DNA of 64,000 nt from contig JAKSYS010000054.1 of the NCBI GenBank assembly GCA_022925895.1, positions 92,671-156,670 of the forward strand, given 5' to 3'. Made by a program: the position numbers and the translations under genes. How positions within the stretch are numbered: the first letter of the stretch is position 1; every line of letters starts with the position of its first letter. This DNA comes from Fragilaria crotonensis. Lineage: Eukaryota; Bacillariophyta; Fragilariophyceae; Fragilariales; Fragilariaceae. This document shows, one piece after another, positions 14,965-53,200 of the stretch. A model generated the notes under the pieces. It saw only the letters and a list, made by a program, of their open reading frames with translations, made no database searches and was not told the DNA's origin.

Positions 14965-15120
14965 CTATGCATACACTGAACGATTATACCAGGTACTAGT
15001 ACTTGTACTCAGAGTATGTATTTCATAGTACCAGTAGTCTAGTAGTACTCCGAGTATCAAGTACTCGGGTACTTGTCCTTGTACCAGGTTCACAAACATA
15101 TATATCATACACTGTACTAG

Positions 15121-16710
15121 CTCCAATGCGGCGGTTCGAGTGCACACGGTTTTCACGTGTTTTTATTTACTGTGATTTTTCTTCATGACTTGTTGCTTTC
15201 TTCTTTATACGTACCTCCTAGTACAGTTGCACGTAGAGATTGCAAAACGTATCGCTCCAATCAAAAACCCCTCGTACAGTAAAATTATAAACATATCCAT
15301 ACTCTCGATCACTGCCTGGCATCATCAAGAAGATTATTACTATTGCACTTGTAAGTACTTGGTGCTACTTCTACTGTGTTACCTTGTTACAACAGTCTTC
15401 TTTGCTACACCATGTTGGGGAGTACTCGAGTACATAGGAAGTCGGCTCGAACGTGCTCAAATGAGACTCCTGCTCTTGAAGGAAAGTTCTCATCACAGCT
15501 CTCGCTTGACGTCGCAGCAATACAATACACCAGTTCCCTAAATTCGACAATACTTCCAAAGATGCTTACCAGATTTCTGTATGCAGTGCCTTCAGGTTTT
15601 GTTACATCCACTCGGCTTTTGCTTCCTCATTGAAGTTGCAAAACAGCACTGCTCGCGGCTGCATGTCACATTCAAATACCTTCTCGTAGTTCCTCCGCTC
15701 CTCAATGTGATAAGCAACAAAGAGGTTTCTTATTGCAGAAAGGCATACCTGTGCCACTTCTTGACTGTCAATGACATTTTGTTCCGCGTGATTTCAATTC
15801 CTCTCATTGCCGACTTCTTTTTCGTGCGCGTTTTAATTGTTGAATGATTTTTACTGACACCCCACGCTTTTGCCACGTAACTGATAGCTCATGAGTTGCC
15901 TTTGTCGTACTCTTTCCATGTTTTCCTTTGCAAGTTCATTGTTGTGTATCAGAACCAGACACACCGACAGATGACCGCCCTGCCAGAAATCGAAAAAGTT
16001 GTCGGTACTGTTGGCACAGCCGATGCTGAAGATGCTCGTTTCGAATCCCAAACTTCAAAACACTCCAAGCTCTTTGGCTTGCTATTCCTTATTCTATCCA
16101 TGTAATGAACCATCAGCAAGTGCTTCATTCTTGACGTTCTTGTGAGCATTGAATCGTTTGCCTGCTGATTTTGTTTCAGCTCGTGACACGTCCGCTTACT
16201 TGTAAGGACCGTCATATCCCAGCATGCAGCCAACATCTCCACTTCTCTCTTGGCCATGTTCGTGCTCTTGCTGCTTTTCTGTAGCTCTCATCATTATTAA
16301 TTTCAAATTCCTCCTTGAAACTTAGACAATTTCCCACCAAAAGTGGATTAAACTCCTCCAACAGCTTGGAATCTTGGGTTTGCTCGTGTTTTCGCGCGGA
16401 AAGTTGAATTTGTGCATTTCTCCTTTTCAATTTGTTCAAACTCAGCATGCCCAACAGGCTAGAACTCATGAACAATCTGCTTCATGTGGCCGCACAGTAC
16501 ATCAGCAAATGGCGGTGTTACAGATGTCATTGTCACTTGAGGAGTTGCGCAATGGAAGCTTGCACTTTCTACCAATTTATGACTCCGACGATGCTCCAAC
16601 ACAGTGAACGTTGCACCGTAGAATTAATATCAGAAGCTACACGTGCGATTAGTCAAATTCACTTCGTGGAAATTTCTTGAACCGTGTGCACTCGAACCGC
16701 CGCCTTGGAG
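15121..16710. mobile_element. 1.59-kb element with 31-bp terminal inverted repeats, family unknown
   Basis: Bases 15121-15151 and 16680-16710 are inverted repeats matching at 30 of 31 positions, with the core GGCGGTTCGAGTGCACACGG. A third copy of the same end begins at 52798, and scattered similarity continues inward there (compare 15299-15440 with 52975-53130), so this is a repeated family. No intact transposase is visible; the longest internal frames are under 120 codons and unrecognised. No clear target duplication was found. The end contains GGTTCGAGTGC, one mismatch from a Pol III B box, which may be chance. Confidence 0.6.
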
Positions 16711-16979
16711 GTCGTACTCCGAGTAAACATCAATCTCGATCGGGAAGATAACTATTGGCGCCGAGAACTTTGTTTCGCTAACAATGACAATGCTGTGAAA
16801 CTTTGAAACGTTGACAACCACGAGCATAATGGTGCGCAAGCTTTGTATCTGTGTCATTTGTCGCGGACGATTCATCTCTGTCTCTGGTAAGTTGACGCCA
16901 AATCAAACTGTTTTCTGTTGTTGTGGAAATCTGCCACCAACAAACTCTGACATTTATCACGTCGAAGGCGACAACGACA
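16711..16979. other. Upstream region of the SNM1 gene
   Basis: No separate gene seen. A possible splice donor (CTCTG|GTAAGT) at about 16886 leaves room for a 5' UTR intron or an upstream coding exon of the SNM1 gene. Confidence 0.35.
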
Positions 16980-26503: not shown

Positions 26504-26584
26504 GGAGGTCCGGTAAAATGACGTTTTTTCTCGTTGCTTCTACATGCAATTAATACCAAGCAGACGTTAGTGGCTGGACCTTCC
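26504..26584 (+). mobile_element. 82-bp inverted-repeat mini-element, copy 1
   Basis: Starts GGAGGTCCGG and ends CTGGACCTTCC, an imperfect terminal inverted repeat, with an interior that includes ACATGCAATTAATACCAAGC. Two further copies lie at 31331-31412 (inverted) and 31447-31528. Conservation across copies is high, with clustered differences near TTTTTTCTCGTTG. No target duplication is clear. Confidence 0.75.
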
Positions 26585-27039: not shown

Positions 27040-27303
27040 AACTGTACCATACTATCATATTCCAGTACAAGTACAAGCTATCATAACAGTTTACTGGAGT
27101 ACTGGTACTTGTACTACCGGTAGACTACGATCATACTGGCGGAAGCCGGCTTGCGCCGCCGGCCTCCCTTGCTTTTTTCATGTGCATACATTTTGTGGCA
27201 GTCGGAGCAATTCATACGAGTGGGCCGTGTATCCAGTACTCGTACGGAATACGAGATGAGCCATGAAGACATGAAGTATGATGTATGATAGTCGTTGAGG
27301 GGG
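27040..27303. other. Intergenic between repeat elements
   Basis: GTAC-rich DNA with one CTACCGGTAG palindrome near 27115; no gene seen. Confidence 0.45.
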
Positions 27304-29567
27304 TCCGATTAGGTTTCACCAATTTGACGTCAGCACTTTTCAGCACTTTTGTTGCGGAATTTAACTTGTACGGAATCTTTATCTTTGATTTTCTCAGCGC
27401 CCACTTTTCAAACCACCTCTTGTGCAAAACTACGTTCTAGATAAGGAACATAAATCAGCGCCACATTTGTTTGAATAGAAATAAAAATGATCGTGTCTAG
27501 ATGTGTATATAACAGGGTACCAGTAGTGGATTCAAGTTTACTCACACAAAACTCATAATTTTGATATTTCACAACCACGATGGTACGGCACTTTGTCTCC
27601 CTGTCATTCTTGTTTCTCTTGTTGTTCTTGCTCTCCTTGCTGCTTTTGTTTCTCTTGTTGCTGTTGTTCTGTTTTTGCTCTTGTTCGCTCTCTGTCTGTT
27701 GCCATTTTGCGTTACTACAGCACCCACCTACCGATTATTCTGTAACCAACCCCCTGTTTTGTTCTCTTTAGGATCATCCACAACAAGCAAGAAGGACCAT
27801 TGATGCAGGATCCACATCCAGTGGATCAGACTCTATCTGCTCTCAAGGCTATGTCATGGACTGCTTCTTTGCCTTTCAAAGGTCATTTTTGTCATGCAAC
27901 CGATTTCAATGTATCATTGGAAACCAAGTATGACCTCTTTCAGTACACTACTTCTATGTACAAAGGTTCCAAGCACATTATTTGGTCCTAGCTAATCAAT
28001 GTCGCAAGAGATCCACTTGCCTGAGGCACCACTCAACGACCTCTGTTCTGGACATGAAACTGATGTTTCTGATAATTTTGTTGATGTACAGCACACGAAG
28101 TAGTACATTTAGTAGAATTAAAAACAACTTTCGTTCTTGTTCGACATCATGAGTAGGATGGGGACTACTATTTGGTGATCGAAATTTGATCTTCAAATAG
28201 TCGTCACAGTACGAGTAACACTAGTACAGTACAATGGCGACTATTTGGTGATCGAAATTCGATCTTCAAATAGTCGTCACAGTACGAGTATCACCAGTAC
28301 AGTACAATGGCGACTATTTGGTGATCGAAATTCGATCTTCAAATAGTCGTCACAGTATGAGTAACACCAGTACAGTACAATGGCGACTATTTGGTGATCG
28401 AAATTGATCTTCAAATAGTCGTCACAGTCGAGTATCACCAGTACAGTACAATGGTGACTATTTGGTGATCAAAATTTGATCTTCAAATAGTCATCACAGT
28501 ATGAGTAACACCAGTACAGTACAATGGCGACTATTTGGTGATCGAAATTCGATCTTCAAATAGTCGTCACAGTCTGAGTATCACCAGTACAGTACAATGG
28601 CGACTATTTGGTGATCAAATTGATCTTCAAATAGTCGTCACAGTATAGTAACACCAGTACAGTACAATGGCGACTATTTGGTGATCGAAATTGATCTTCA
28701 AATAGTCGTCACAGTACAAGTAACACCAGTACAGTACAATGGCGACTATTTGGTGATCAAATTGATCTTCAAATAGTCGTCACAGTCTGAGTAACACCAG
28801 TACAGTACAATGGCGACTATTTGGTGATCGAAATTTGATCTTCAAATAGTCGTCACAGTACGAGTAACAGCAGTACAGTACAATGGCGACTATTTGGTGA
28901 TCGAAATTCGATCTTCAAATAGTCGTCACAGTACGATATCACCAGTACAGTACAATGGCGACTATTTGGTGATCGAAATTTGATCTTCAAATAGTCGTCA
29001 CAGTACAGTAACACTAGTACAGTACAATGGCGACTATTTGGTGATCGAAATTTGATCTTCAAATAGTCGTCACAGTACCAATAACACCAGTACAGTACAA
29101 TGGCGACTATTTGGTGATCGAAATTCGATCTTCAAATAGTCGTCACAGTACCAGTAACAGCAGTACAGTACAATGGCGACTATTTGGTGATCGAAATTCG
29201 ATCTTCAAATAGTCGTCACAGTACCAGTAACAGCAGTACAGTACAATGGCAAATAGTCCTTTGAGTACGGTAGTACTGTTGCAGTACAGTGTAGTACTCG
29301 AGTGATTCAAAAGGGAAACACATGAAGATTCAAAAGGGAAACACATGAATCACTGATAGAAGGAGAAGAGTAGCAGTTATCTATCTGACATGACAAAGGC
29401 TTGGCATGCGCATTAGGAAAAGCACCGATAGAAGTCAACAACAAAGATTCCGTGTTTTGTCAGCCATTCAAATTTCCGATGTCTTCAAAATTCTTCTACA
29501 GGAGGTCTCACTGTAGATTATTACTATGACGTGGGCGCTGACGTCAAATTGGTGAAACCTAATCGGA
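27304..29567. mobile_element. 2.26-kb unit bounded by 31-bp perfect inverted repeats, containing a palindromic tandem array
   Basis: The ends at 27304-27334 and 29537-29567 are exact inverted repeats (TCCGATTAGGTTTCACCAAT outermost). Immediate flanks GTCGTTGA on the left and GTCATTGC on the right agree at 6 of 8 positions, so a decayed 8-bp target duplication is possible but unproven. Inside are a TTGTT/CTTGTT-rich low-complexity stretch (27600-27700), a 63-codon open frame at 27800-27991 with no recognised domain, the tandem array at 28166-29250, and a 23-bp direct duplication near 29307-29350. No transposase is seen, so if mobile the unit is non-autonomous. Confidence 0.6.
28166..29250. repeat. 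Tandem array, about 15 units of 70-73 bp, each with a 37-bp palindrome
   Basis: Units begin at about 28166, 28239, 28312, 28385, 28456, 28529, 28602, 28672, 28744, 28815, 28888, 28960, 29032, 29105 and 29178. Each starts GACTATTTGGTGATC, passes through GAAATTC and ends GATCTTCAAATAGTC, forming a near-perfect hairpin of 18 possible pairs with two non-pairs. A linker of about 36 bp containing CAGTACAGTACAATGGC follows. The array ends with a truncated unit at about 29251-29268. Units differ mainly at CpG sites. There is no open frame through the array and the linkers are conserved, so this is not a CRISPR. Confidence 0.93.
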
Positions 29568-29778
29568 TCCGGTCATTGCTCACAGGTACCTCACAGTTTA
29601 ATCAAACATCAAGGAAGTAACGCTTCAGCTAAAGACAGACCCTCGGTACAGTCCCTTATTCCCTTCCCTGAGCTAGACCCTGCATCGCACTCCTCACTCC
29701 ATCCTACTTTGGATCGATTGATTGTGCACGGTGACGTTACCGTAGCCAGAAGGATCACTAGGTTCTGACTATCCCTAC

Positions 29779-30774
29779 ATGCTTGCTTCAATTCCAGTCA
29801 TACAAAAGCGTGGTCGTCCACGACCTTCGTCCGTCGGCTTGATAATTGTTGCCGTTGCGATTGTAGCATTCAATGCGCAAAAGCTTGACTTCTCCAAATT
29901 GAACCATGGAAAAAATATCGAGATGACAACGCGAACTGACCATGCAGATGAAATTCAGCCGCGTCTTTCTCCAGCTTGTACATTCAATCGGGGAATAGGA
30001 AAAGGAGGCTCTCGGATAGAAAAAATTGTCCTGGTTCACATGCGTAAGGCCGGCGGAACCAGTATGAAGGCATACTTGGGTGAGGTCTCAACAAAATACA
30101 ACATTACACTCCAAGACTTTGAAGGAGAGCGCCCGATACTGCCGGAACACTCCGACGGCAAGACCTTGTTCGTCACCCATATCCGAGAGCCCGCCTCGCG
30201 AGTTTTGAGCCACTACAAGTACGAAATGCGCTGGTATTGTAAACACCTCACGGATAAAAAGAAAACGTTTGATCCAGTTAATTCATCGAGAACGACGCTG
30301 GATCGCTTTGTCGAACGTGAAAACAAACCGAACACCGCTGGAGGCGAAAAAGGTAACCTGTGGGAATGTTCGCACAATTGCTACGCTAAGTGGTCCACTG
30401 GGCTATGTTGGATTGAAGGTGCTTTCGATGAATCAACCATGTGCTGGTCTAGGGAGAATGATGAAGGGTCACTACTCTCCCGGGCACGCGAAGTGCTGTA
30501 TTCCTACCATCTCATCGTGGTCATAGAATGGCTTCAGAATCCAGAATATGTGAAAGCAATTGAAGCGCTCTTTGGTCTAGAGGGCATCGCGAAACAGAGG
30601 ACAGATATGTGGTGCGGAAAAGAATCAGCGGCAGCCAACAAAAAGTTTCCGCTAGTAGTTCCAGAAGATACGCGACAACGAATCCTGCATTTCAACCAGC
30701 TGGATACAATACTCTATAATGAGCTGACGAACTGCTCAAGACTTGATTTTCCGAATCGTTCCATTTTTGTGTAA
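29779..30774 (+). CDS. Type II membrane sulfotransferase (Sulfotransfer_2-like)
   Basis: Transfers sulfate from PAPS to an acceptor, probably a glycan in the Golgi lumen. The 331-aa single-exon protein has a short basic N-terminus, one membrane anchor at about residues 19-33 (VGLIIVAVAIVAF), then a luminal domain. The 5'-phosphosulfate loop is VHMRKAGGTSMKAYL (86-100) and the 3'-phosphate motif is REPASRVLSHY (136-146). Cysteines at 30-50 residue spacing suggest disulfides. Acceptor specificity cannot be read from sequence; the family includes heparan 2-O- and chondroitin/carbohydrate sulfotransferases. It lies 211 bp right of a repeat unit, in an otherwise gene-poor island. Confidence 0.8.
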   Translation: MLASIPVIQKRGRPRPSSVGLIIVAVAIVAFNAQKLDFSKLNHGKNIEMTTRTDHADEIQPRLSPACTFNRGIGKGGSRIEKIVLVHMRKAGGTSMKAYLGEVSTKYNITLQDFEGERPILPEHSDGKTLFVTHIREPASRVLSHYKYEMRWYCKHLTDKKKTFDPVNSSRTTLDRFVERENKPNTAGGEKGNLWECSHNCYAKWSTGLCWIEGAFDESTMCWSRENDEGSLLSRAREVLYSYHLIVVIEWLQNPEYVKAIEALFGLEGIAKQRTDMWCGKESAAANKKFPLVVPEDTRQRILHFNQLDTILYNELTNCSRLDFPNRSIFV

Positions 30775-31330: not shown

Positions 31331-31528
31331 GGAAGGTCCGGCCACGCACCTCTGCTTGGTATTAATTGCATGTAGAAGCTACGAGAAGAAACGTCATTTT
31401 ACCGGACCTCCCTCTGGTCAAGTTGTAGACCTGTACTTTTAGTGCTGGGAGGTCCGGTAAAATGACGTTTCTTCTCGTAGGTTCTACATGCAATTAATAC
31501 CAAGCAGAGGTGCGTGGCCGGACCTTCC
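31331..31528. mobile_element. Head-to-head pair of the 82-bp mini-element (long hairpin)
   Basis: Copy 2 (31331-31412, reversed) and copy 3 (31447-31528) are nearly exact inverted copies separated by 34 bp, so the 198-bp region can form a hairpin with about 80-bp arms. Each arm is itself bounded by GGA(A)GGTCCGG-type inverted ends. The arms differ by only a few bases, which indicates a recent inversion-duplication or gene conversion. Confidence 0.85.
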
Positions 31529-41282: not shown

Positions 41283-41421
41283 GGCTAGGGACGACTGCGA
41301 CTGTGTGATCTTAATGGCAATCCTAGGAAGGCTCTTAGTGACGAACAGGTTGCTAATGTCGTATGCAAGTCGAAATGCTCACCTTTATACCATGTACCAG
41401 GCTACCAGGCACTGTAGTGTC

Positions 41422-42009
41422 AGTCGAAGTACACGGCGTGATCAAGGCTGCGTACTAGTTCGTAGAAATCCGGGTTCGGTCAAACGTAGAGTTATTAATT
41501 CTAGTGTTGTTTAACTTATGAGCTTATTTCTAGGTTTCACTTTGAAGGAACCAATTCAATCCAGGTCCGATTGAATCTTGCCGATCTACTTTCGCGAAGT
41601 TAGAGGGTTGTGGGAGTGAACATTCAAAGCCTTCATCCCACTGATAAGGGCATTGAAATGTCAGCTCCAACTCCGCCGTCACGAGCAAATTGACAGTCGC
41701 AACAACTGTTGCAACATGGCCAGACTTAGCCAACATGATGAGGGACACATGTTGGAAATTAGTTGGCACATGAAGGGAAATTGCAGTTGAATTGCACTGG
41801 GTTAATGTGGACAAATTGTTGTTGTAGAAAAGGAGGTTATGAGGGCGGAAAGCAGTCCGGGACAACTGTAGTTTTCGTACTGGCGATTCGCCGTATACAG
41901 TTGGCGTGAGAATCTTCGTATCCAAAGCCGGATGGGACTCAGCTGGCGGGGACGAAATTTCAACGTCAATAACGGCACAATAACAGCTGTCAGCTGCTGT
42001 ACCTTGACT
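41422..42009 (-). repeat. 3' LTR of the copia element (588 bp)
   Basis: Matches 48898-49494 over its whole length. It lacks a 7-base duplication (GTGAACA-type, near 41620) and two A residues of the A-run near 41827 found in the other LTR. It is 139 bp from the AKR7 start codon. Confidence 0.95.
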
Positions 42010-42018
42010 CTCCCTCTC
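42010..42018 (-). promoter_or_regulatory. Polypurine tract
   Basis: On the minus strand GAGAGGGAG directly abuts the 3' LTR, the position where plus-strand priming occurs in LTR elements. Confidence 0.8.
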
Positions 42019-42040
42019 ATTCAATGAAACAAGAAATAGA

Positions 42041-43697
42041 TTAGTGATGGTGTGGTGAAAATGTAGGACATGAACAATAAACATATGGGCTTGCAGGATA
42101 AGAGGGAACACTCTTAAATCCACCCAACACAAGTGCGGCGGTGCCGCGTGTCACCAACCTTGAGCAAGCTTTGAATGCGTTCGAAAACTTCTCGATTGAG
42201 GCCCTTGGTAAGGTAGTCAGCCAACTGGTCAGTGGTTGCAATCTTGAGCACTTCGACATCTCCGTTGCGGACGTGGTGCCAAAGAAGTGCCACTTAACCA
42301 GGAAGTACTTGGTGCGATTAGTAATGCGTTGCTTGGTAGCGAGCAGCAGAGCACCATTGTTGTCTTCAAAGACTCGGCAGCGAATGGTAGACTTGAAGTC
42401 AGGTGGCAGAGTCAATTCCTTGCAGATTTCTCCAAGAAGATCACGAAGTGGCAACAGAGTCCTCATGCTTGCACTGAGAGCAGAGTACTCAGATTCCAAT
42501 GTGGACAGGAGATCTCTGTTTGCAGTTGAGACTTCCAGAGAATTGGACAACCTCCAAGGGTGATGATGTAGCCGGTGCGGGACTTGGCGCTGGTGTCAGA
42601 ATGATCAGGGTCACGACCATGGAGGCCAGCAAAGTCAGCATCAACATAACAATCAAGAGAGAGGTCTCCAGTGGAGTCACAATAGTTCCTTTGTCAGCAG
42701 TGCGGTGCAAGTAGCGGACAATTGTTTTGATTGCCATGGCATGGCTCTTCTTGGGAGAATGATTGAACCTGGCAACTTGACTTACTGCAAATGTGATGTC
42801 TGGCCTTGTGTTTGTTGACAAGTACAAGAGCATTCCAACAATAGAGCGGTAGTTCCAGAACTCATCCATGGGTTCTCCATCAGGGTCAATCCCAAGGCAT
42901 GCTTGCATAGCAGGGTGTGGTTGGGGTTGCAGTCTTGAAGTCCTGTTGCCTTTATGATCTTCTGGATCAAACCCTTTTGTGTTAGGGTGACAGTGTTGGA
43001 ACTTCATCCTTGACAAACTTGATTCCAAGAAAGTCAGTGAAGGTGCCTTCACGAGTGAACTCCAAACCCAAATCAGTAAGATCCTGGAACAGTTTGTCAA
43101 GATCCTTCTTGTTGGAGTAGGCAATCCCAAGATCATCAACATAGAGAACAATCATGATGGTCTTGCTGTACAAGAGGCATGAGTCTGTGGCACTCTGCTT
43201 CAATCCTTGGAGGAGGAGTGCTTCACGAATGTGTTGATACCAAAGGCGGGAGCAACCGAGAGACCGTAGAGGCTCTTAACAAGTCGTAGGCAAGTCCTTT
43301 GGTCGCTTGGCTGATCAGACTTGAAGCCTCTTGGCATGTGGATCCAGACTGGGTCAGTTAGGTTGGCTTGGACAAAGGCACTGCTGAAGTCAATGGAGCA
43401 AGTTTGCCATCCCAATGTTAGGGACAAGACAAGGAACAATCGAACTGAACTCCAAGCAACAACTGGGGCATAGGTTTCAGGTTCTCCTTCTTCAAGGTCG
43501 CCTCGAACACAGTAGCGCTTTGTACTTGGTGACTTCTCCATCTGGGGATCGCTTGCGCGAAATACCCAAGTCCCTGGGAGAATCTTGGTCTTGGCTTCAA
43601 GGATACTGACTTCCTTCCAAGTCCCATTCTTCTCAAGGCTTGCCACTTCCTTAGCAGCTGCCTCCATCCACTTGGTCACATGCTCAATGTCAGCCAT
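42041..43697 (-). pseudogene. Copia reverse transcriptase and RNase H, frameshifted
   Basis: Read on the minus strand. The segment from 43697 has the start of the polymerase domain (ASLEKNGTWKEV, CSIDFSSAFVQANL, IHMPRGFK). The frame then changes near 43200 to one with the catalytic YVDD box (VLYVDDLGIAYSNKKDL), again near 43000-43150 to one with the conserved YRSIVGMLLYLSTNTRPDI, and again near 42550 to RNase H (ESEYSALSASMRTLLPLRDL, EDNNGALLLA, NRTKYFLVKWHFF). At least three frame changes mean no full-length polyprotein can be made from this copy. Confidence 0.88.
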
Positions 43698-43711
43698 AGC
43701 TTGGTCAAAGC

Positions 43712-44593
43712 TCAGAGTGTCAGGATCAGATGCAGCTGCCTTGAAGGCAGTTGGGGAAAGGATGATTCCATTTTCCTCAAAGATCCAAGCACTTGGAGAA
43801 GCAAAGTATCCATGGCCTTGAGTGTTATCGTATCCAAGGCGTTGTGGTGCTGCGCGAATGCGGTTGGACCGGCGCGGAGACGTTGGTGGCGGAGGCGACT
43901 TGACTGGTTGCTCGTCACGTGGTGAGTCAAGGGCGAATGCATTGTCTGGAACAGGACTCTCCTCGTTTCAGACATTGGGGTCTGCTCCCGAACTGGGGAG
44001 AAGATTGGCTGATGAACTGGGGAGATCGGGGTAGCTGGGACCTTGCGTGGCGTCTCTTCCTTGGCTTGTGAGCTGGAGTGTGGACGGCGTTGCAGAGGTG
44101 AAGTTCTGATGTCTGGCGTTGGAGGAGACTGGAGAGACCGAGGATCGATAGACTGCTCCCTCGTTTGAGACATCATGGGAGTTGGAGGCCTTGGAGTGAG
44201 CAATGGAGAACTTGGCAATGGCTGTGGAACAGTTGGTGTCCTGGGTGGAGCCTCAGCCAAGGGAGGAACTGGGAGTTGTTCAATTGCAACAGCTTCATCC
44301 ATGGAGGCAGCAACTCTTGTTTGGTTCTCATTGATGGCTTCTGTAGCTTGGGAGTCCATTCGCGCTTCCTCTGTAGCATCATTGTCGTCGTCGTCATCGA
44401 ATGGGAACTGATATCTTGAGTCGCCAAACAAACGGGCCCAACGCGTTGTATTAAAATCCGGGAGGGCATCCACATTGGTAGCCACTGTTGCAAACCAATC
44501 ATCAAACACAATGTGATATTGGGGAGTGATGTACCCTGTCTCTGGATTCAAAACCAAGGGGACTGTGCTTGCATGTTTCTTGGAGAGCCCCAT
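43712..44593 (-). pseudogene. Copia integrase-RT linker fragment
   Basis: Minus-strand frame beginning MGLSKKHASTVPLVLNPETG, typical of the post-integrase region before reverse transcriptase, followed by a Pro/Ser-rich linker. It is in a different frame from the integrase segment (which ends at 44502) and from the RT start at 43697, so it is separated by frame changes on both sides. Confidence 0.7.
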
Positions 44594-46526
44594 GTTGACA
44601 CAGCGGATGGACCGAGGCTTCCAGCGAGGCAGCTTCTTTCCATCTGCAATGGTTTCTCAAGAGCATACACAGGCATCCCCACACATGCAGATCATGATAC
44701 TTCCTTTGCTCCCATCTGGACTTGGTGAAGACATCACTTGGACAGAGACCTGTTGCCAAATCAGGAACATGGTTGTGGAGAAAGATAGCATGGGAGACTG
44801 CCATTGGCCAAAGTGTTGCATCAGCCACATCTGGCCAATGTACCGCTGAATGGAGCATCATTGTCCGAGCGATCGACATGATCGTTTGGATTGCCCTCTC
44901 AGCATGGCCATTGTGATGGTGAGCTCCAACTCCAGCAAACTTGACAACTTGTTTCAGAGTTCCAAGGTGCTCAGTGAACTTAGCTGAGGTGAAGCTCCCA
45001 CCATTGTCAGAGAGATAGGATTGTGGAATGACTCCACTGTCCCTTGCCATCAACTCAAAGTTCTGCTTGGCCTTCAGAGTCTCATGAGTGTTCAGATGCT
45101 TCTGAAACTCAACATGCACAAAGTTGGAAGCATGATCAATGAAGAGGCAGCCACCAGCAAACATGTCTGAGTTCAAGCTCCTTCCAGCTGAAGAGAAGAG
45201 CCTTCCCTTTGTTCCACAAATGAAGTGATCAATGGAGACTTGTTGTCCAGGGAGCAAGTTGTCTGCCTTGAGAACTCCAGCTCGATCCTTGATAACAGTT
45301 GTGATCTTGGCAGGAGCTGGTCGCTGATGTTGCTTCCCATATTGGCATGCGGCACACTTGGGAGGGTTGACAATTCGGCAAGCAGCAGTATGGAGTGATC
45401 GATGCGACTCACTCCGACTCAGGACTCCAGTTCGCATGATGAATTGGATCTTGCGAAAGGAAAGGTGTCCAAGGCGGTGGTGCCACCTTAATAACTCCTT
45501 CTCAGCTTCAGTCAAGTTGAGGTTGCTCTCATGAACAGTGTTGAGAGTAATGTTGAGAGCTGCAACTGCCTTGGGAGTATCTGAGCTGCGGTGTGCATCA
45601 GAGGTAGGCAAGTTGTTGTCAGGGTTGACTCTTGCAATGAGTTGCCCTCTGGCTTCATCAGAGGTGCCACTCAAGGTCAGTTGATGAGCTTCAATGGTGA
45701 TGGTCTCTCCAGGGTAAGCTTGGAGCAAGCTTGTGGTGGATAGGAGCCTGACCTTGATGCAAGACACCAAGTATGCTGGGACCTTGAGCATCCTTAGGTT
45801 GCCCAGAGTATCTTGCATTGCCCACAGAACATGACCTTGGCCTTCAATCCTGAGTCCCTTTGCAATGCCCTGCAGTTGAGTGATAGGGCCAGGGGTGTTG
45901 ATGGGTCCAACAAAGTCCTTGCGGTCAGGAGTGATCGAGATGCTTGCACCAGAGTCCCAAATGACAGGAAACGTTGAAGCCTTGGGAAGGGATTCGCGGA
46001 AGCGGTCGGTTGACTGGAGAGCCATGCGAAGGATTGTGGAGTAGTTGCCGTTTGGAAACTTAGCCATGTTCACTTGCATTGCCATCTTGCGAGCAGCTTG
46101 AAGTTGCTTGGAGGTCCACTGATGGTTCCCTAGGCCTTGGAAGCCAATGGGAGAGACGGGGCGATAGACGCCGTTGGACTTGGGAAGCCTGCGAGCGCGG
46201 CGTCGCTGCTGGCGAAGCGGAGCGTCGAGGTAGGCGTCGTTGACATCGCAGTGGTTGATCCTTGGCCCTTCCTCTTGCGTCGACAAATCCGATGGCGAGC
46301 GGGATGTGTTACGGAGCTTGGGGCAAGGTTCAGTTGGCCCATGGACGATTGTATCGTTGCAGTGGCGGCAGGTCCAGTGAGTTGATCGCGGAATGGAGCG
46401 CTTGAGCGAGTCGACACGCTGAAGGAGAGTTGCAACCTTGGAGTGAAGGTCGTTCAACTGCACTTGCTGCTGTTGTTCAACCAACGTTGGTGCATTCCTC
46501 CGAATGTAGCGTCCCATGGATCGCAA
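44502..46526 (-). pseudogene. Copia protease-integrase segment
   Basis: Longest surviving frame of the element (674 codons, minus strand). It holds the aspartic protease motif WDSGAS near 45950, a GAG-pre-integrase zinc region (HHRLGHLS...CAACQYGK near 45340-45490), and the integrase core with acidic residues in SIDHF, YLSDNGGSF and GHAERAIQ. The frame is lost near 44640, after HDLHVWG. Confidence 0.9.
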
Positions 46527-46921
46527 GTTAATGGGGTACCTGCGATGCAGTCCATGGGAGCGAATACTTCCGGCTTGGGAACATTCGCGCGTCGTGTGAC
46601 CTTGCGATTGTGTTGCTTGAGAGCACGACGATGGCGGCGAGAAGGTAGCTCCTTAGGATCAGGCTCAGGCGATGTTGAGCTGGGCTTAGGAAGCCAGAAC
46701 AGTACGACCATGGCCAGTAAGGCCCAAAGCAATGGAGCAATGAGCGCCTCCTGGTGAGCCTCCAAAATTGCGAGACGTGCGGGCGAACGACCATGACATG
46801 CGCTCGAAGGATTGCCATGACTTGGCTCCAATCGACGGCGTTAAAATGCGCCATGGCGAGTTGAATAATTTCCAGCGTGGAGGTCCACATAGTTTTGCAA
46901 ACGGGACTGAAAATATTGCCA

Positions 46922-48653
46922 TCACGTAGGTGAGCAGTAGAACGAGTACGGGAGGATCCGGGTCACCATGGTGCGCAGGATAAAGAGCGCGTCAGTCACA
47001 CTTGGGACGACCTCAATTTCCGTGGTCCACACCGATGGATCGAAGGCAAGGGAGACATTGTTGATTGCAGAACCAACACCTTGAGGGCCCTCAGAGCTCT
47101 TCTTGACACCAGTGTGCGTTGCCGTTGCGTGGGTAGTGGTCCAACGCTTGCAGCTTGCGCACCAGTTGAAAGCCTTTCCGTTGGCTTGCTTGACTTGAGG
47201 TGCTCCAGATGGAGGAGGAGTAGACTTCCAGGACTTGACATCCTTTGGTCTTTCATTGCCATTCCCATTCCTGCCCTTGCCCTTGTTGTTCTCTGGGCAT
47301 TCGCGCGACCAGTGTCCAGGCTTGTTGCACTTGTGACAGACTCCTTTCTTGGCAAGTCCAGCACCATTGTTGGAGGCCTTGGACTGGATGAGGTTGAGTA
47401 CCTCAGCTCTGGTGATTGGAGTTGCCATGTTTCCAATGCAGCTGGTGGAGCCTTGGAGTCGCGAGTGTGACGTGCAGGTGGCCACTCCTTCCTGTCAAAG
47501 AGCGTCCTGTAGGCATCCTCTGCGTGAGCGCAGATGTCCTTGTAGGTCAGCTTGTTGACTTGCATGTGAAGGTTGGCAGCTTCCTTGTCCTTGAATCCAA
47601 TGTCCAAAGAGCTTGCTCCAAGTTCTGCTTGACAGATCTCAGGGGAAGCGGAAGTCCTCATTGCCAGAACCACCAGCCAAAAGAAAGATCTTGAGCATGG
47701 CCAGAGTGAGGTTGTGGTCATACTGGCCAGCAGTTGTCAACTCATTTGCATCCTTGCGAAAGTGAGCTGCCAATTGTTCAAGGTTCTCTCCAGAGTACTG
47801 ACTTGGGAGCCTGGCCTTGATGATGGCCTTGAGATCTTCAAACCTCTCAATGGAGGTGGACTGGATGGACTTGAGGAACTGGAGCCAAACAACTGGGAAG
47901 GAGTCAGAATCATCCAACTTCTCAGTCACCTTATTGCTTAGCTCAGTAGAGTGAAGCAAGCAAATAGGTCCTGGCTGCCATATCGTTGGTCCGTCATACT
48001 TGTCGTAGCGTTGAACTTGAGCTTCCGCCAACAACTTTGCCGACTGGACCGTGTACCTGGCGTGAGCCTTGATAACGTTAGTCATCTTGGCGTCGTCAGT
48101 TGGGTCCCTGAGGTAAGCAATGGAGTCCATGCCAGTGTCCTTGAGATGATCCCAGACAACATTCTGGAAGCTGATCAAATCATCACTTGGCTTGAAGGAG
48201 ATCTTGTGCCCAGTTCTCCTGAAGTTGTAGCCCTTCTGGGCTGCAGAAACATAGACAGGGCGGAGCTGGTTGGGAGAGGTGTGCTCTAGGAGAGCAATGG
48301 AGCCATCCAAACCTGTCCAGGTGTGGTTGGGCTTTCCACCTGTCCAAGCAGACCATTCATCCTTGGTCACCAAAGTGATTCCCCAATGAGGGAACAAGAG
48401 GCTTGGAGCTTGAAGGAGCTGGGAGCTCCACTGGGGCAGTCATTGGAGTTGGGAACTCCAAGACAGACTCTTCATCAGTAGCAAGAGTCCTGGCTTGAGC
48501 GATTGCCTCGGTGAGGCGAACGTCGACAGGATCGGAGATCTCGAATCCTTCTGGATTGCCGCGGCCTTCGACAGCAGTCCCGAGGATTCCAACAACAGGT
48601 TCGTCTGGAAGATTCGTCGGGGACGTAGAGCCTTCAGATGGTGGAACCGACAT
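46922..48653 (-). pseudogene. Copia gag, frameshifted
   Basis: Starts MSVPPSEGSTSP at 48653. The frame changes near 48390 into FPHWGITLVTKDEWSAW, near 47650 into EICQAELGASSLDIGFKDKE, and near 47450 into the part with the CCHC zinc knuckle CHKCNKPGHWSREC (47298-47339). Together these make a recognisable copia Gag in three frames. Confidence 0.85.
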
Positions 48654-48897
48654 GATGATTGGAGTCTTGGCTTGGAAAGCAGATCTTCAACCACTCAACA
48701 GATTGCTGACTGCGTACTCGAGTTGGCAGAGAGCAATGAATCAGCCTAGTCTTGGGAAGACGTGGGGCTGTCGCAGGATCGCCGGAGGAGACCTGCCTTG
48801 ACGCGGAGCGTAACTTCCTTGGAAAGGAACTTGAAACGAGCTTGCCGGAGAGGAAAGTGCGTTAGAGGGTAAGTCTTATTATTGGGCGAAAATAACC

Positions 48898-49494
48898 AGT
48901 CGAAGTACACGGCGTGATCAAGGCTGCGTACTAGTTCGTAGAAATCCGGGTTCGGTCAAACGTAGAGTTATTAATTCTAGTGTTGTTTAACTTATGAGCT
49001 TATTTCTAGGTTTCACTTTGAAGGAACCAATTCAATCCAGGTCCGATTGAATCTTGCCGATCTACTTTCGCGAAGTTAGAGGGTTGTGGGAGTGAACAGT
49101 GAACATTCAAAGCCTTCATCCCACTGATAAGGGCATTGAAATGTCAGCTCCAACTCCGCCGTCACGAGCGAATTGACAGTCGCAACAACTGTTGCAACAT
49201 GGCCAGACTTAGCCAACATGATGAGGGACACATGTTGGAAATTAGTTGGCACATAAAGGGAAATTGCAGTTGAATTGCACTGGGTTAATGTGGACAAATT
49301 GTTGTTGTAGAAAAAAGGAGGTTATGAGGGCGGAAAGCAGTCCGGGACAACTGTAGTTTTCGTACTGGCGATTCGCCGTATACAGTTGGCGTGAGAATCT
49401 TCGTATCCAAAGCCGGATGGGACTCAGCTGGCGGGGACGAAATTTCAACGTCAATAACGGCACAATAACAGCTGTCAGCTGCTGTACCTTGACT
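48898..49494 (-). repeat. 5' LTR of the copia element (597 bp)
   Basis: Counterpart of 41422-42009. The sequence directly inside it on the minus strand begins GGTTATTTTCGCCC; I could not match this confidently to a tRNA 3' end, so the primer-binding site is unresolved. Confidence 0.94.
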
Positions 49495-52747: not shown

Positions 52748-52797
52748 CTCGTGGTCTTGGCCTAAAGATCTACGCAGAGTAACATGTACTCTACGAC

Positions 52798-53200
52798 CTC
52801 CAAGGCGGCGGTTCGAGTGCACACGGTTTTTTCGCTCTGATTTTTCTCAGTCACAGCTTTAGTACTAGGGCTACGGTAGGCGCACGTAGGTGCCGTACTG
52901 TACTAATGCGGCCATCGAACATCGACCATCAAACGCACATGGTGTGTGATGTTATCGGCATACCCAGATATCCTAGTACTCTCTCGATCCCTGGTTTCTT
53001 CTTGATTCCTATCGTCAAGATTAAGATAATCATTCGTATCGCTAAGTAATTGATGCTTCTAGTACACTGTTACCTCGTCACGACAGCAGACTTTGTTGCT
53101 ACACCATCAGGAGTAACATAGAATCGGCTCGACCACAATTTTCCTTGCCATCTCCGCACAACTGGCGTTGATCATGAAAGTCGCAAATAATTGCACCAAT
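52798..53200 (+). mobile_element. Second, truncated copy of the 15.1-16.7 kb TIR element
   Basis: Begins with the same 31-bp end (CTCCAAGGCGGCGGTTCGAG...) and shares interrupted similarity with 15299-15440, for instance the words around TTTGTTGCTACACCAT and ATCGGCTCGA. I found no matching opposite end further right, so the right part is lost or replaced. The right limit given is where similarity fades. Confidence 0.55.

What the first reader, a model, noticed from the sequence alone, without database searches (positions are those of the whole stretch)
28166..29250. Tandem array of fifteen ~73-bp units, each a 37-bp hairpin plus conserved linker
Seen directly: units of 70-73 bp, each with arms GACTATTTGG.../...CAAATAGTC that pair at 16 of 18 positions. 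The array sits inside a unit bounded by perfect 31-bp inverted repeats. Transcription through it from either side would give a chain of hairpins, a plausible small-RNA source; alternatively each hairpin is a protein-binding palindrome. I know of no described element with this layout, but I cannot search databases.
Basis: partly seen in the sequence, partly recalled or inferred. Interest (0 to 1): 0.75.

Follow-up and report, generated by a model that had tools for sequence, protein, structure and literature searches.

The report
Diatom transposon carrying repeated palindrome arrays
The hairpin array belongs to a shortened copy of a mobile element of a freshwater diatom; a full-length copy carries three such arrays, a transposase gene and a gene resembling DNA-demethylating enzymes, which suggests that the arrays are landing sites that help the element escape silencing.

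Summary
Observation confirmed: fifteen 70-73-bp units (28166-29250) inside a 2.27-kb element with perfect 31-bp inverted ends. The genome is Fragilaria crotonensis. The window copy is an internally deleted derivative of a dispersed ~12-kb transposon with a MULE-type transposase. The long copy read in full has three arrays (B and C inverted relative to A), a TET-like dioxygenase gene ending inside array A, and a DUF6824 gene. A second family (transposase 62-70% identical) repeats this layout with differently sequenced, ~52-bp, again palindromic units. In array A the two 15-bp half-sites diverge least; at three of four edge CpGs 86-92% of CpG transitions hit the base outside the half-site, the fourth shows no such bias. 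CpG transitions are in excess, as in methylated DNA. Derivatives of 150-165 bp with ends only have also spread, so arrays are not required in cis for movement. Best explanation (inferred, 0.45): binding platforms of an element-encoded anti-silencing system, working like Arabidopsis VANDAL/VANC; membership is not shown. Rivals: neutral minisatellite, RNA source, transposase sites. No 8-11-bp target duplication in 24 copies, as listed for published diatom MULEs.

The parts
27301..29570 (+). Non-autonomous (internally deleted) element of the MULE-type family F1; 2264 bp between the outer ends of the 31-bp repeats
   Evidence: ends and length; homology to the 12.2-kb copy on contig C77 in blocks
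27301..27334 (+). Left terminal inverted repeat, GGG + perfect 31 bp
   Evidence: 96 forward + 91 reverse genome matches
27304..27986 (+). Left region shared with long copies (91% identical to C77); in C77 it precedes and includes the 5' end of the transposase gene
   Evidence: (40 of 184 candidates scored)
27995..28040 (+). 46-bp remnant of the region just behind the SWIM-like frame of the long copy
28166..29250 (+). Array A: fifteen 70-73-bp units, each with a 37-bp palindrome of two 15-bp half-sites (GACTATTTGGTGATC / GATCTTCAAATAGTC) and a linker
29304..29349 (+). 23-bp tandem duplication in the right arm
29251..29536 (+). Right subterminal region shared with other copies
   Evidence: 40 of 158 candidates scored: 20 of the short type, 20 of the long type
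29537..29570 (-). Right terminal inverted repeat, perfect 31 bp + TCC

Best explanation
The array is a functional cis-element of a TIR transposon with a MULE-type transposase in Fragilaria crotonensis. The window holds a deleted copy that keeps the two ends, the left flank with the 5' end of the transposase gene, and array A. SHOWN: the one long copy read in full carries three arrays of homologous palindromes, B and C inverted relative to A, plus a transposase gene, a gene whose product has a TET-like fold, and a DUF6824 gene; a second family has the same layout with differently sequenced palindromes; half-sites are the least diverged part of the A unit; CpGs in the unit carry a methylation-like decay pattern; small MITEs with ends only have also spread. 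INFERRED: each unit binds a dimeric element-encoded DNA-binding protein (candidate: the DUF6824 protein, the most diverged of three genes compared on one contig; or the TET-like protein itself). The array would concentrate it on the element and, with the dioxygenase, remove or block cytosine methylation so that the element's genes stay expressed. Deleted copies that keep the array would share the protection in trans. This is a VANDAL/VANC-like anti-silencing scheme.
Against: No binding, methylation or expression data. No VANC sequence was compared. MITEs of 150-165 bp without arrays amplified, so protection or binding is not needed for every mobile derivative. The fourth edge CpG shows no such bias (7:15 among distinct units, 11:10 by contig; 29:10). 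Units share descent, so unit counts are not independent events. Deamination in extruded cruciform loops could mimic part of the CpG bias. Only two families of one genome were compared. A 40%-identical transposase relative (C220) shows no array in the 2.8 kb read downstream; whether that locus is a transposon is not known. Sequence search alone does not place the dioxygenase in a Pfam family.
Confidence: 0.45

Rival explanations
1. Neutral minisatellite: the arrays are tandem repeats that grew by slippage or unequal exchange inside the element and are carried along; similarity among units is concerted evolution.
For: Unit number varies, about 8-19. Minisatellites are listed for Phantom of aphids and for Rehavkus (outgroup there) in the table of PMC6446971 (passages). 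MITEs without arrays spread.
Against: Uneven divergence along the unit (arms 0.02, linker 0.12) and the directional CpG decay at three of four sites are not expected of a neutral repeat; F2 keeps arrays in two orientations and dyad symmetry with other sequence.
Confidence: 0.2
2. Double-stranded RNA source or 3'-end element: convergent transcripts of the transposase and TET-like genes run into array A, giving hairpin or duplex RNA that feeds host small-RNA silencing or ends transcription.
For: In C77 array A starts about 70 bp after the last frame behind the transposase and supplies the stop codon of the TET-like gene; hairpins fold far below shuffles. In P. tricornutum the majority of small RNAs map to silenced, methylated transposable elements (PMC4247016, passages including the abstract).
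Against: Array B lies between divergent frames, not at a 3' end; the B/C consensus loses the inner stem (-10.0 kcal/mol); within F1 the outer arms are kept as sequence, not by compensation: 1 cell of 3762 (9 outer pairs, 418 A units) has a change on both sides.
Confidence: 0.17
3. Transposase-binding array: units are extra copies of the end motif that raise transposition, as subterminal repeats do in other DNA transposons (recalled).
For: F1 B-type unit CACCAAATAGTCGTCA resembles the F1 end CACCAATTTGACGTCA at 13 of 16 positions; ungapped, 30 of 1000 and 19 of 500 shuffles do as well.
Against: With gaps 85 of 1000 shuffles do as well for B; A-type units are weaker (76 of 1000 ungapped, 72 gapped; 43 of 500), and the F2 unit has no match to the F2 end (493 of 500 shuffles as good). 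MITEs of 150-165 bp with ends only have spread in both families. Arrays A and B are internal, not subterminal, in the long copy.
Confidence: 0.15

Closest known systems
VANDAL21/VANC anti-silencing system, Arabidopsis (PMC5735166 and PMC10398659, passages seen)
   Same: MULE-type element; tandem repeats of a short motif in noncoding regions, expanding and contracting, differing between related families; element-encoded accessory genes
   Different: VANC motifs are 8-9 bp, and those of VANC21 stand in one orientation; here each unit is a 37-bp palindrome and arrays occur in both orientations. No VANC sequence was compared; a TET-like gene and a DUF6824 gene are present here. Binding and demethylation are not shown here.
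MULE-Diatoms, group 37 in PMC6446971 (table passages)
   Same: Diatom host, MULE transposase, no target-site duplication listed, SWIM-type finger listed (a CxC..CxH stretch is seen here by eye)
   Different: The table lists TIRs of 123-124 bp, one ORF and no other motif; here TIRs are about 34 bp, with at least two further genes and three palindrome arrays
Fungal DNA transposons encoding TET/JBP dioxygenases (PMC12730594: outline with abstract, introduction, section 4.2 and a term search)
   Same: DNA transposon carrying a TET-like 2OG dioxygenase; escape from methylation silencing proposed
   Different: Other transposon lineages, fungal hosts; the terms 'Mutator', 'diatom', 'algae' and 'tandem repeat' do not occur in its main text
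MULE-like elements with minisatellites (Phantom of aphids; Rehavkus as outgroup), table of PMC6446971 (passages)
   Same: Minisatellite inside or after the transposase gene
   Different: The table gives no palindromic units, inverted array pairs or TET gene; sequences were not compared here

Membership tests
Mutator-like element (MULE) | MULE (DDE) transposase domain | tested here: met
   PF10551 E 1.7e-13, above the curated cut-off; homologues with PF10551, some named 'MULE transposase domain' by a source
Mutator-like element (MULE) | Terminal inverted repeats | tested here: met
   31-bp core without mismatch in most ends held
Mutator-like element (MULE) | 8-11-bp target-site duplication (usual in the superfamily; listed as absent for the diatom group) | tested here: not met
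   24 copies: no exact repeat longer than 5 bp; one 8-bp match with one mismatch (C658) that overlaps the end bases; mean best score 1.63 against 1.27 permuted, 36 of 300 permutations as high. Published group 37 lists 'No TSD', so it is filed by its transposase as a diatom-type MULE, not as a canonical one.
Mutator-like element (MULE) | SWIM zinc finger | tested here: inconclusive
   CDCNYYECNGVICPHMMH seen by eye in L081:2738-3271; no Pfam hit for that ORF
VANDAL/VANC | Noncoding tandem arrays of a motif that differs between related families | tested here: met
   F1 73-bp and F2 ~52-bp units
VANDAL/VANC | VANC protein encoded by the element | not tested
   no VANC sequence was compared
VANDAL/VANC | Protein binding to the motif and loss of methylation | not testable with these tools
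   needs EMSA, ChIP or methylome
TET/JBP dioxygenase (gene beside array A) | TET-type double-stranded beta-helix fold | tested here: met
TET/JBP dioxygenase (gene beside array A) | Fe(II) triad HxD...H and 2OG-binding Arg | tested here: inconclusive
   H350, D352, R398 and H411 (P0001 numbering) invariant in 31 of 31; their position at the active site of the model was not checked
TET/JBP dioxygenase (gene beside array A) | Sequence-family match | tested here: inconclusive
   PF20515 in 1 of 31 members, E 0.13, below cut-off; no TET chain by profile search of PDB sequences at E up to 1
TET/JBP dioxygenase (gene beside array A) | Oxidation of 5-methylcytosine | not testable with these tools
   enzyme assay needed

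The most novel reading that the evidence does not exclude
Diatom MULEs carry a complete, family-specific anti-silencing module: an element-encoded TET-type dioxygenase steered to its own DNA by arrays of palindromic sites that co-evolve with an element-encoded DNA-binding protein (DUF6824 candidate), and deleted copies such as the window element survive by keeping the ends and one array.
Probability: 0.33. Interest if true: 0.85.

Novelty: new variant of a known kind. Interest (0 to 1): 0.62.

Why it matters
Sequence-specific anti-silencing by arrays of motifs is described for plant VANDAL elements, and TET genes on DNA transposons are described from fungi. A diatom MULE with both features would be a parallel invention in another supergroup. 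It would make a testable system for how a transposon steers a demethylase to itself, and would give a reason why deleted copies retain a minisatellite.

Tried and rejected
Array units as copies of the TIR: marginal in F1, absent in F2. Target-site duplication, and inverted repeats between the two flanks: no signal (36 of 300 and 52 of 300 permutations as high). Known RNA family: none at threshold. Relatives of the TET-like protein in the viral and prokaryote contig collections: 82 and 18 stretches matched a pattern, none confirmed by tblastn. Profile search of PDB sequences with the TET-like alignment: one weak unrelated chain, E 0.81. The first structure model (pLDDT 54.6) was weak; its TET matches were repeated with a better model. 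Literature, seen as listings only: 0 papers with DUF6824; subterminal/tandem/palindromic/Mutator (12 of 52 listed), TET JBP/transposon/dioxygenase/algae (12 of 180), diatom/TET/5-methylcytosine/dioxygenase/transposable (12 of 199), TET/transposon/Mutator-like/diatom/demethyl (12 of 62), diatom/MuDR/hairpin/tandem repeat/transposase (8 of 14). I saw no such element in those listings, but most hits were not listed and the library is partial, so 'not in print' is not claimed. The third protein search found 7 relatives of the DUF6824 frame and no clue to function.

Full report
WHAT IS THERE. The array is as described: fifteen units of 70-73 bp at 28166-29250, each with a 37-bp or slightly shorter imperfect palindrome whose consensus folds far better than shuffles (z -6.5), inside a 2.27-kb element with perfect 31-bp inverted ends at 27304-27334 and 29537-29567. 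Named proteins on contigs whose lengths equal three G000 contigs (124917, 107150, 49822) identify the genome as Fragilaria crotonensis, an araphid diatom.

A DISPERSED FAMILY (F1). The end occurs 96 times forward and 91 times reverse with at most 3 mismatches, with no match for the reversed pattern. Of 184 candidate places for the left flank 40 were scored: 21 are of the window's short type and 19 match only the outer ~690 bp. Of 158 candidates for the right arm 40 were scored, 20 of each type. Left and right matches of the long type on the same contig pair up at 11.9-13.0 kb on 13 contigs and at 3.9-5.3 kb on three (my pairing). The window copy aligns to the long copy C77 in blocks: left 683 bp at 91%, a 46-bp remnant, and array A with its leader at 94%. 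It is therefore an internally deleted copy.

THE LONG COPY. One long copy, C77:62781-75027, was read in full. It has a transposase ORF with PF10551 (E 1.7e-13), followed by ORFs with a SWIM-like stretch seen by eye. Array A starts about 70 bp after the last of these. The TET-like gene lies on the other strand and ends inside array A: its last lysine and its stop codon are read from the last half-site (positions; end of match). Its N-terminus is encoded by the 132-bp tandem repeats; the C77 copy of this gene is frame-broken relative to the public protein P0001 and was left so. Array B lies between the TET-like gene and the next plus-strand frame; array C follows the DUF6824 ORF (E 2.2e-7) and precedes the right end. 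The B consensus aligns to A better when inverted; C carries the same unit as B, strand for strand.

A SECOND FAMILY (F2). Transposase relatives at 68-70% identity in the MULE region (62% over 569 residues for C57) define family F2. Two F2 copies (L083, L084) and part of a third (L086) have arrays of ~52-bp units with another palindrome (CGACATTAGTGG...CCAGTAATGTCG), in two orientations on either side of the TET-like gene. On contig C388 the places and strands of transposase, TET-like, DUF6824 and unit matches fit the same three-array order (my reading). There the identities to F1 are 78% and 58% for two transposase pieces, 55% for the TET-like gene and 32% for DUF6824. BLAST finds no similarity between the F1 and F2 arrays, while the stretches of over 100 bp that align outside them are 72-80% identical. 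So layout and dyad symmetry are kept while the sequence is replaced. A more distant relative, C220 (40%), shows no array in the 2.8 kb downstream.

SELECTION WITHIN THE UNIT. Of 351 linker-anchored A units, 195 are exactly 73 bp, 77 of them distinct. Mean divergence among the 77 is 0.020 and 0.022 in the two 15-bp half-sites, 0.076 in the core and 0.117 in the linker; the 16-bp anchor used for selection (0.060) is biased downward. CpG transitions are 0.092 per site against 0.024 (C) and 0.007 (G) in the 195 units, as expected of past cytosine methylation. In 350 units (238 distinct) three CpGs at half-site edges decay mostly on the base outside the half-site: 44:4, 35:3 and 32:5 among distinct units, against 13:10 at a linker CpG. 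The fourth edge site shows no consistent bias (7:15:10 with another selection of units), so the outermost base appears unconstrained. By contig the changes are seen outside:inside in 22:2, 17:3 and 20:6, fourth site 11:10, control 10:12. Units share descent, so these are not independent events, and deamination in extruded cruciform loops could add to the bias.

WHAT IT IS NOT NEEDED FOR. In the listed part of the 187 F1 end matches, six pairs lie 157-165 bp apart, and a seventh is in L036. In the listed part of the 280 F2 end matches 17 such pairs span 150-163 bp (my pairing). These MITEs have no room for an array. Arrays are thus not obligatory for movement in cis. Mid-size derivatives that keep arrays exist in both families (F1 short type; F2 C241, C328, C248).

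MECHANISM. The facts fit a platform that binds a protein through two inverted half-sites, used by copies that must be expressed or that benefit from protection, and dispensable for tiny MITEs. The element also encodes a TET-like enzyme, and its units carry a methylation-like scar; in the diatom P. [quoted passage not shown] VANDAL elements are reported to do this with VANC proteins and tandem motifs (PMC5735166, PMC10398659; passages). I therefore prefer an anti-silencing array at 0.45. DUF6824 as the binder is a guess resting on its divergence (32%).

MEMBERSHIP. By transposase and ends it is a MULE; the usual 8-11-bp target-site duplication was tested and not found in 24 copies, in line with the published row for diatom MULEs. 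It is not filed as a VANDAL.

Noticed in passing
window 41421-49494: Direct repeats of about 590 bp, 99-100% identical, 7.48 kb apart, with a gag_pre-integrase ORF between: probably a young LTR retrotransposon on the minus strand.
   Followed up: partly
window 31331-31528 and 26504-26584: 82-nt inverted repeat (99% complementary, 34 nt apart) and a third copy 4.7 kb away, on the two sides of the element: another MITE-like family.
   Followed up: no
window 29779-30774: 331-aa ORF starting about 210 bp beyond the right end of the element, weak sulfotransferase match (PF03567 E 0.0028, below cut-off).
   Followed up: partly
G000 C592:8074-9387, C411:1953-3026, C121:18965-20038, C269:62831-63916, C84:87213-88322: TET-like genes at 52-57% identity on contigs without a scored F1 or F2 transposase or array match at those places, perhaps of further transposon families.
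   Followed up: no
L049 (C451), left flank of the F1 copy: An F2-type terminal repeat lies within about 20 bp of the F1 insertion.
   Followed up: no
window 15114-15151, 16680-16717, 52792-52828: A 37-38-bp motif (AACCGTGTGCACTCGAACCGCCGCCTTGGAGG...) present three times in both orientations.
   Followed up: no
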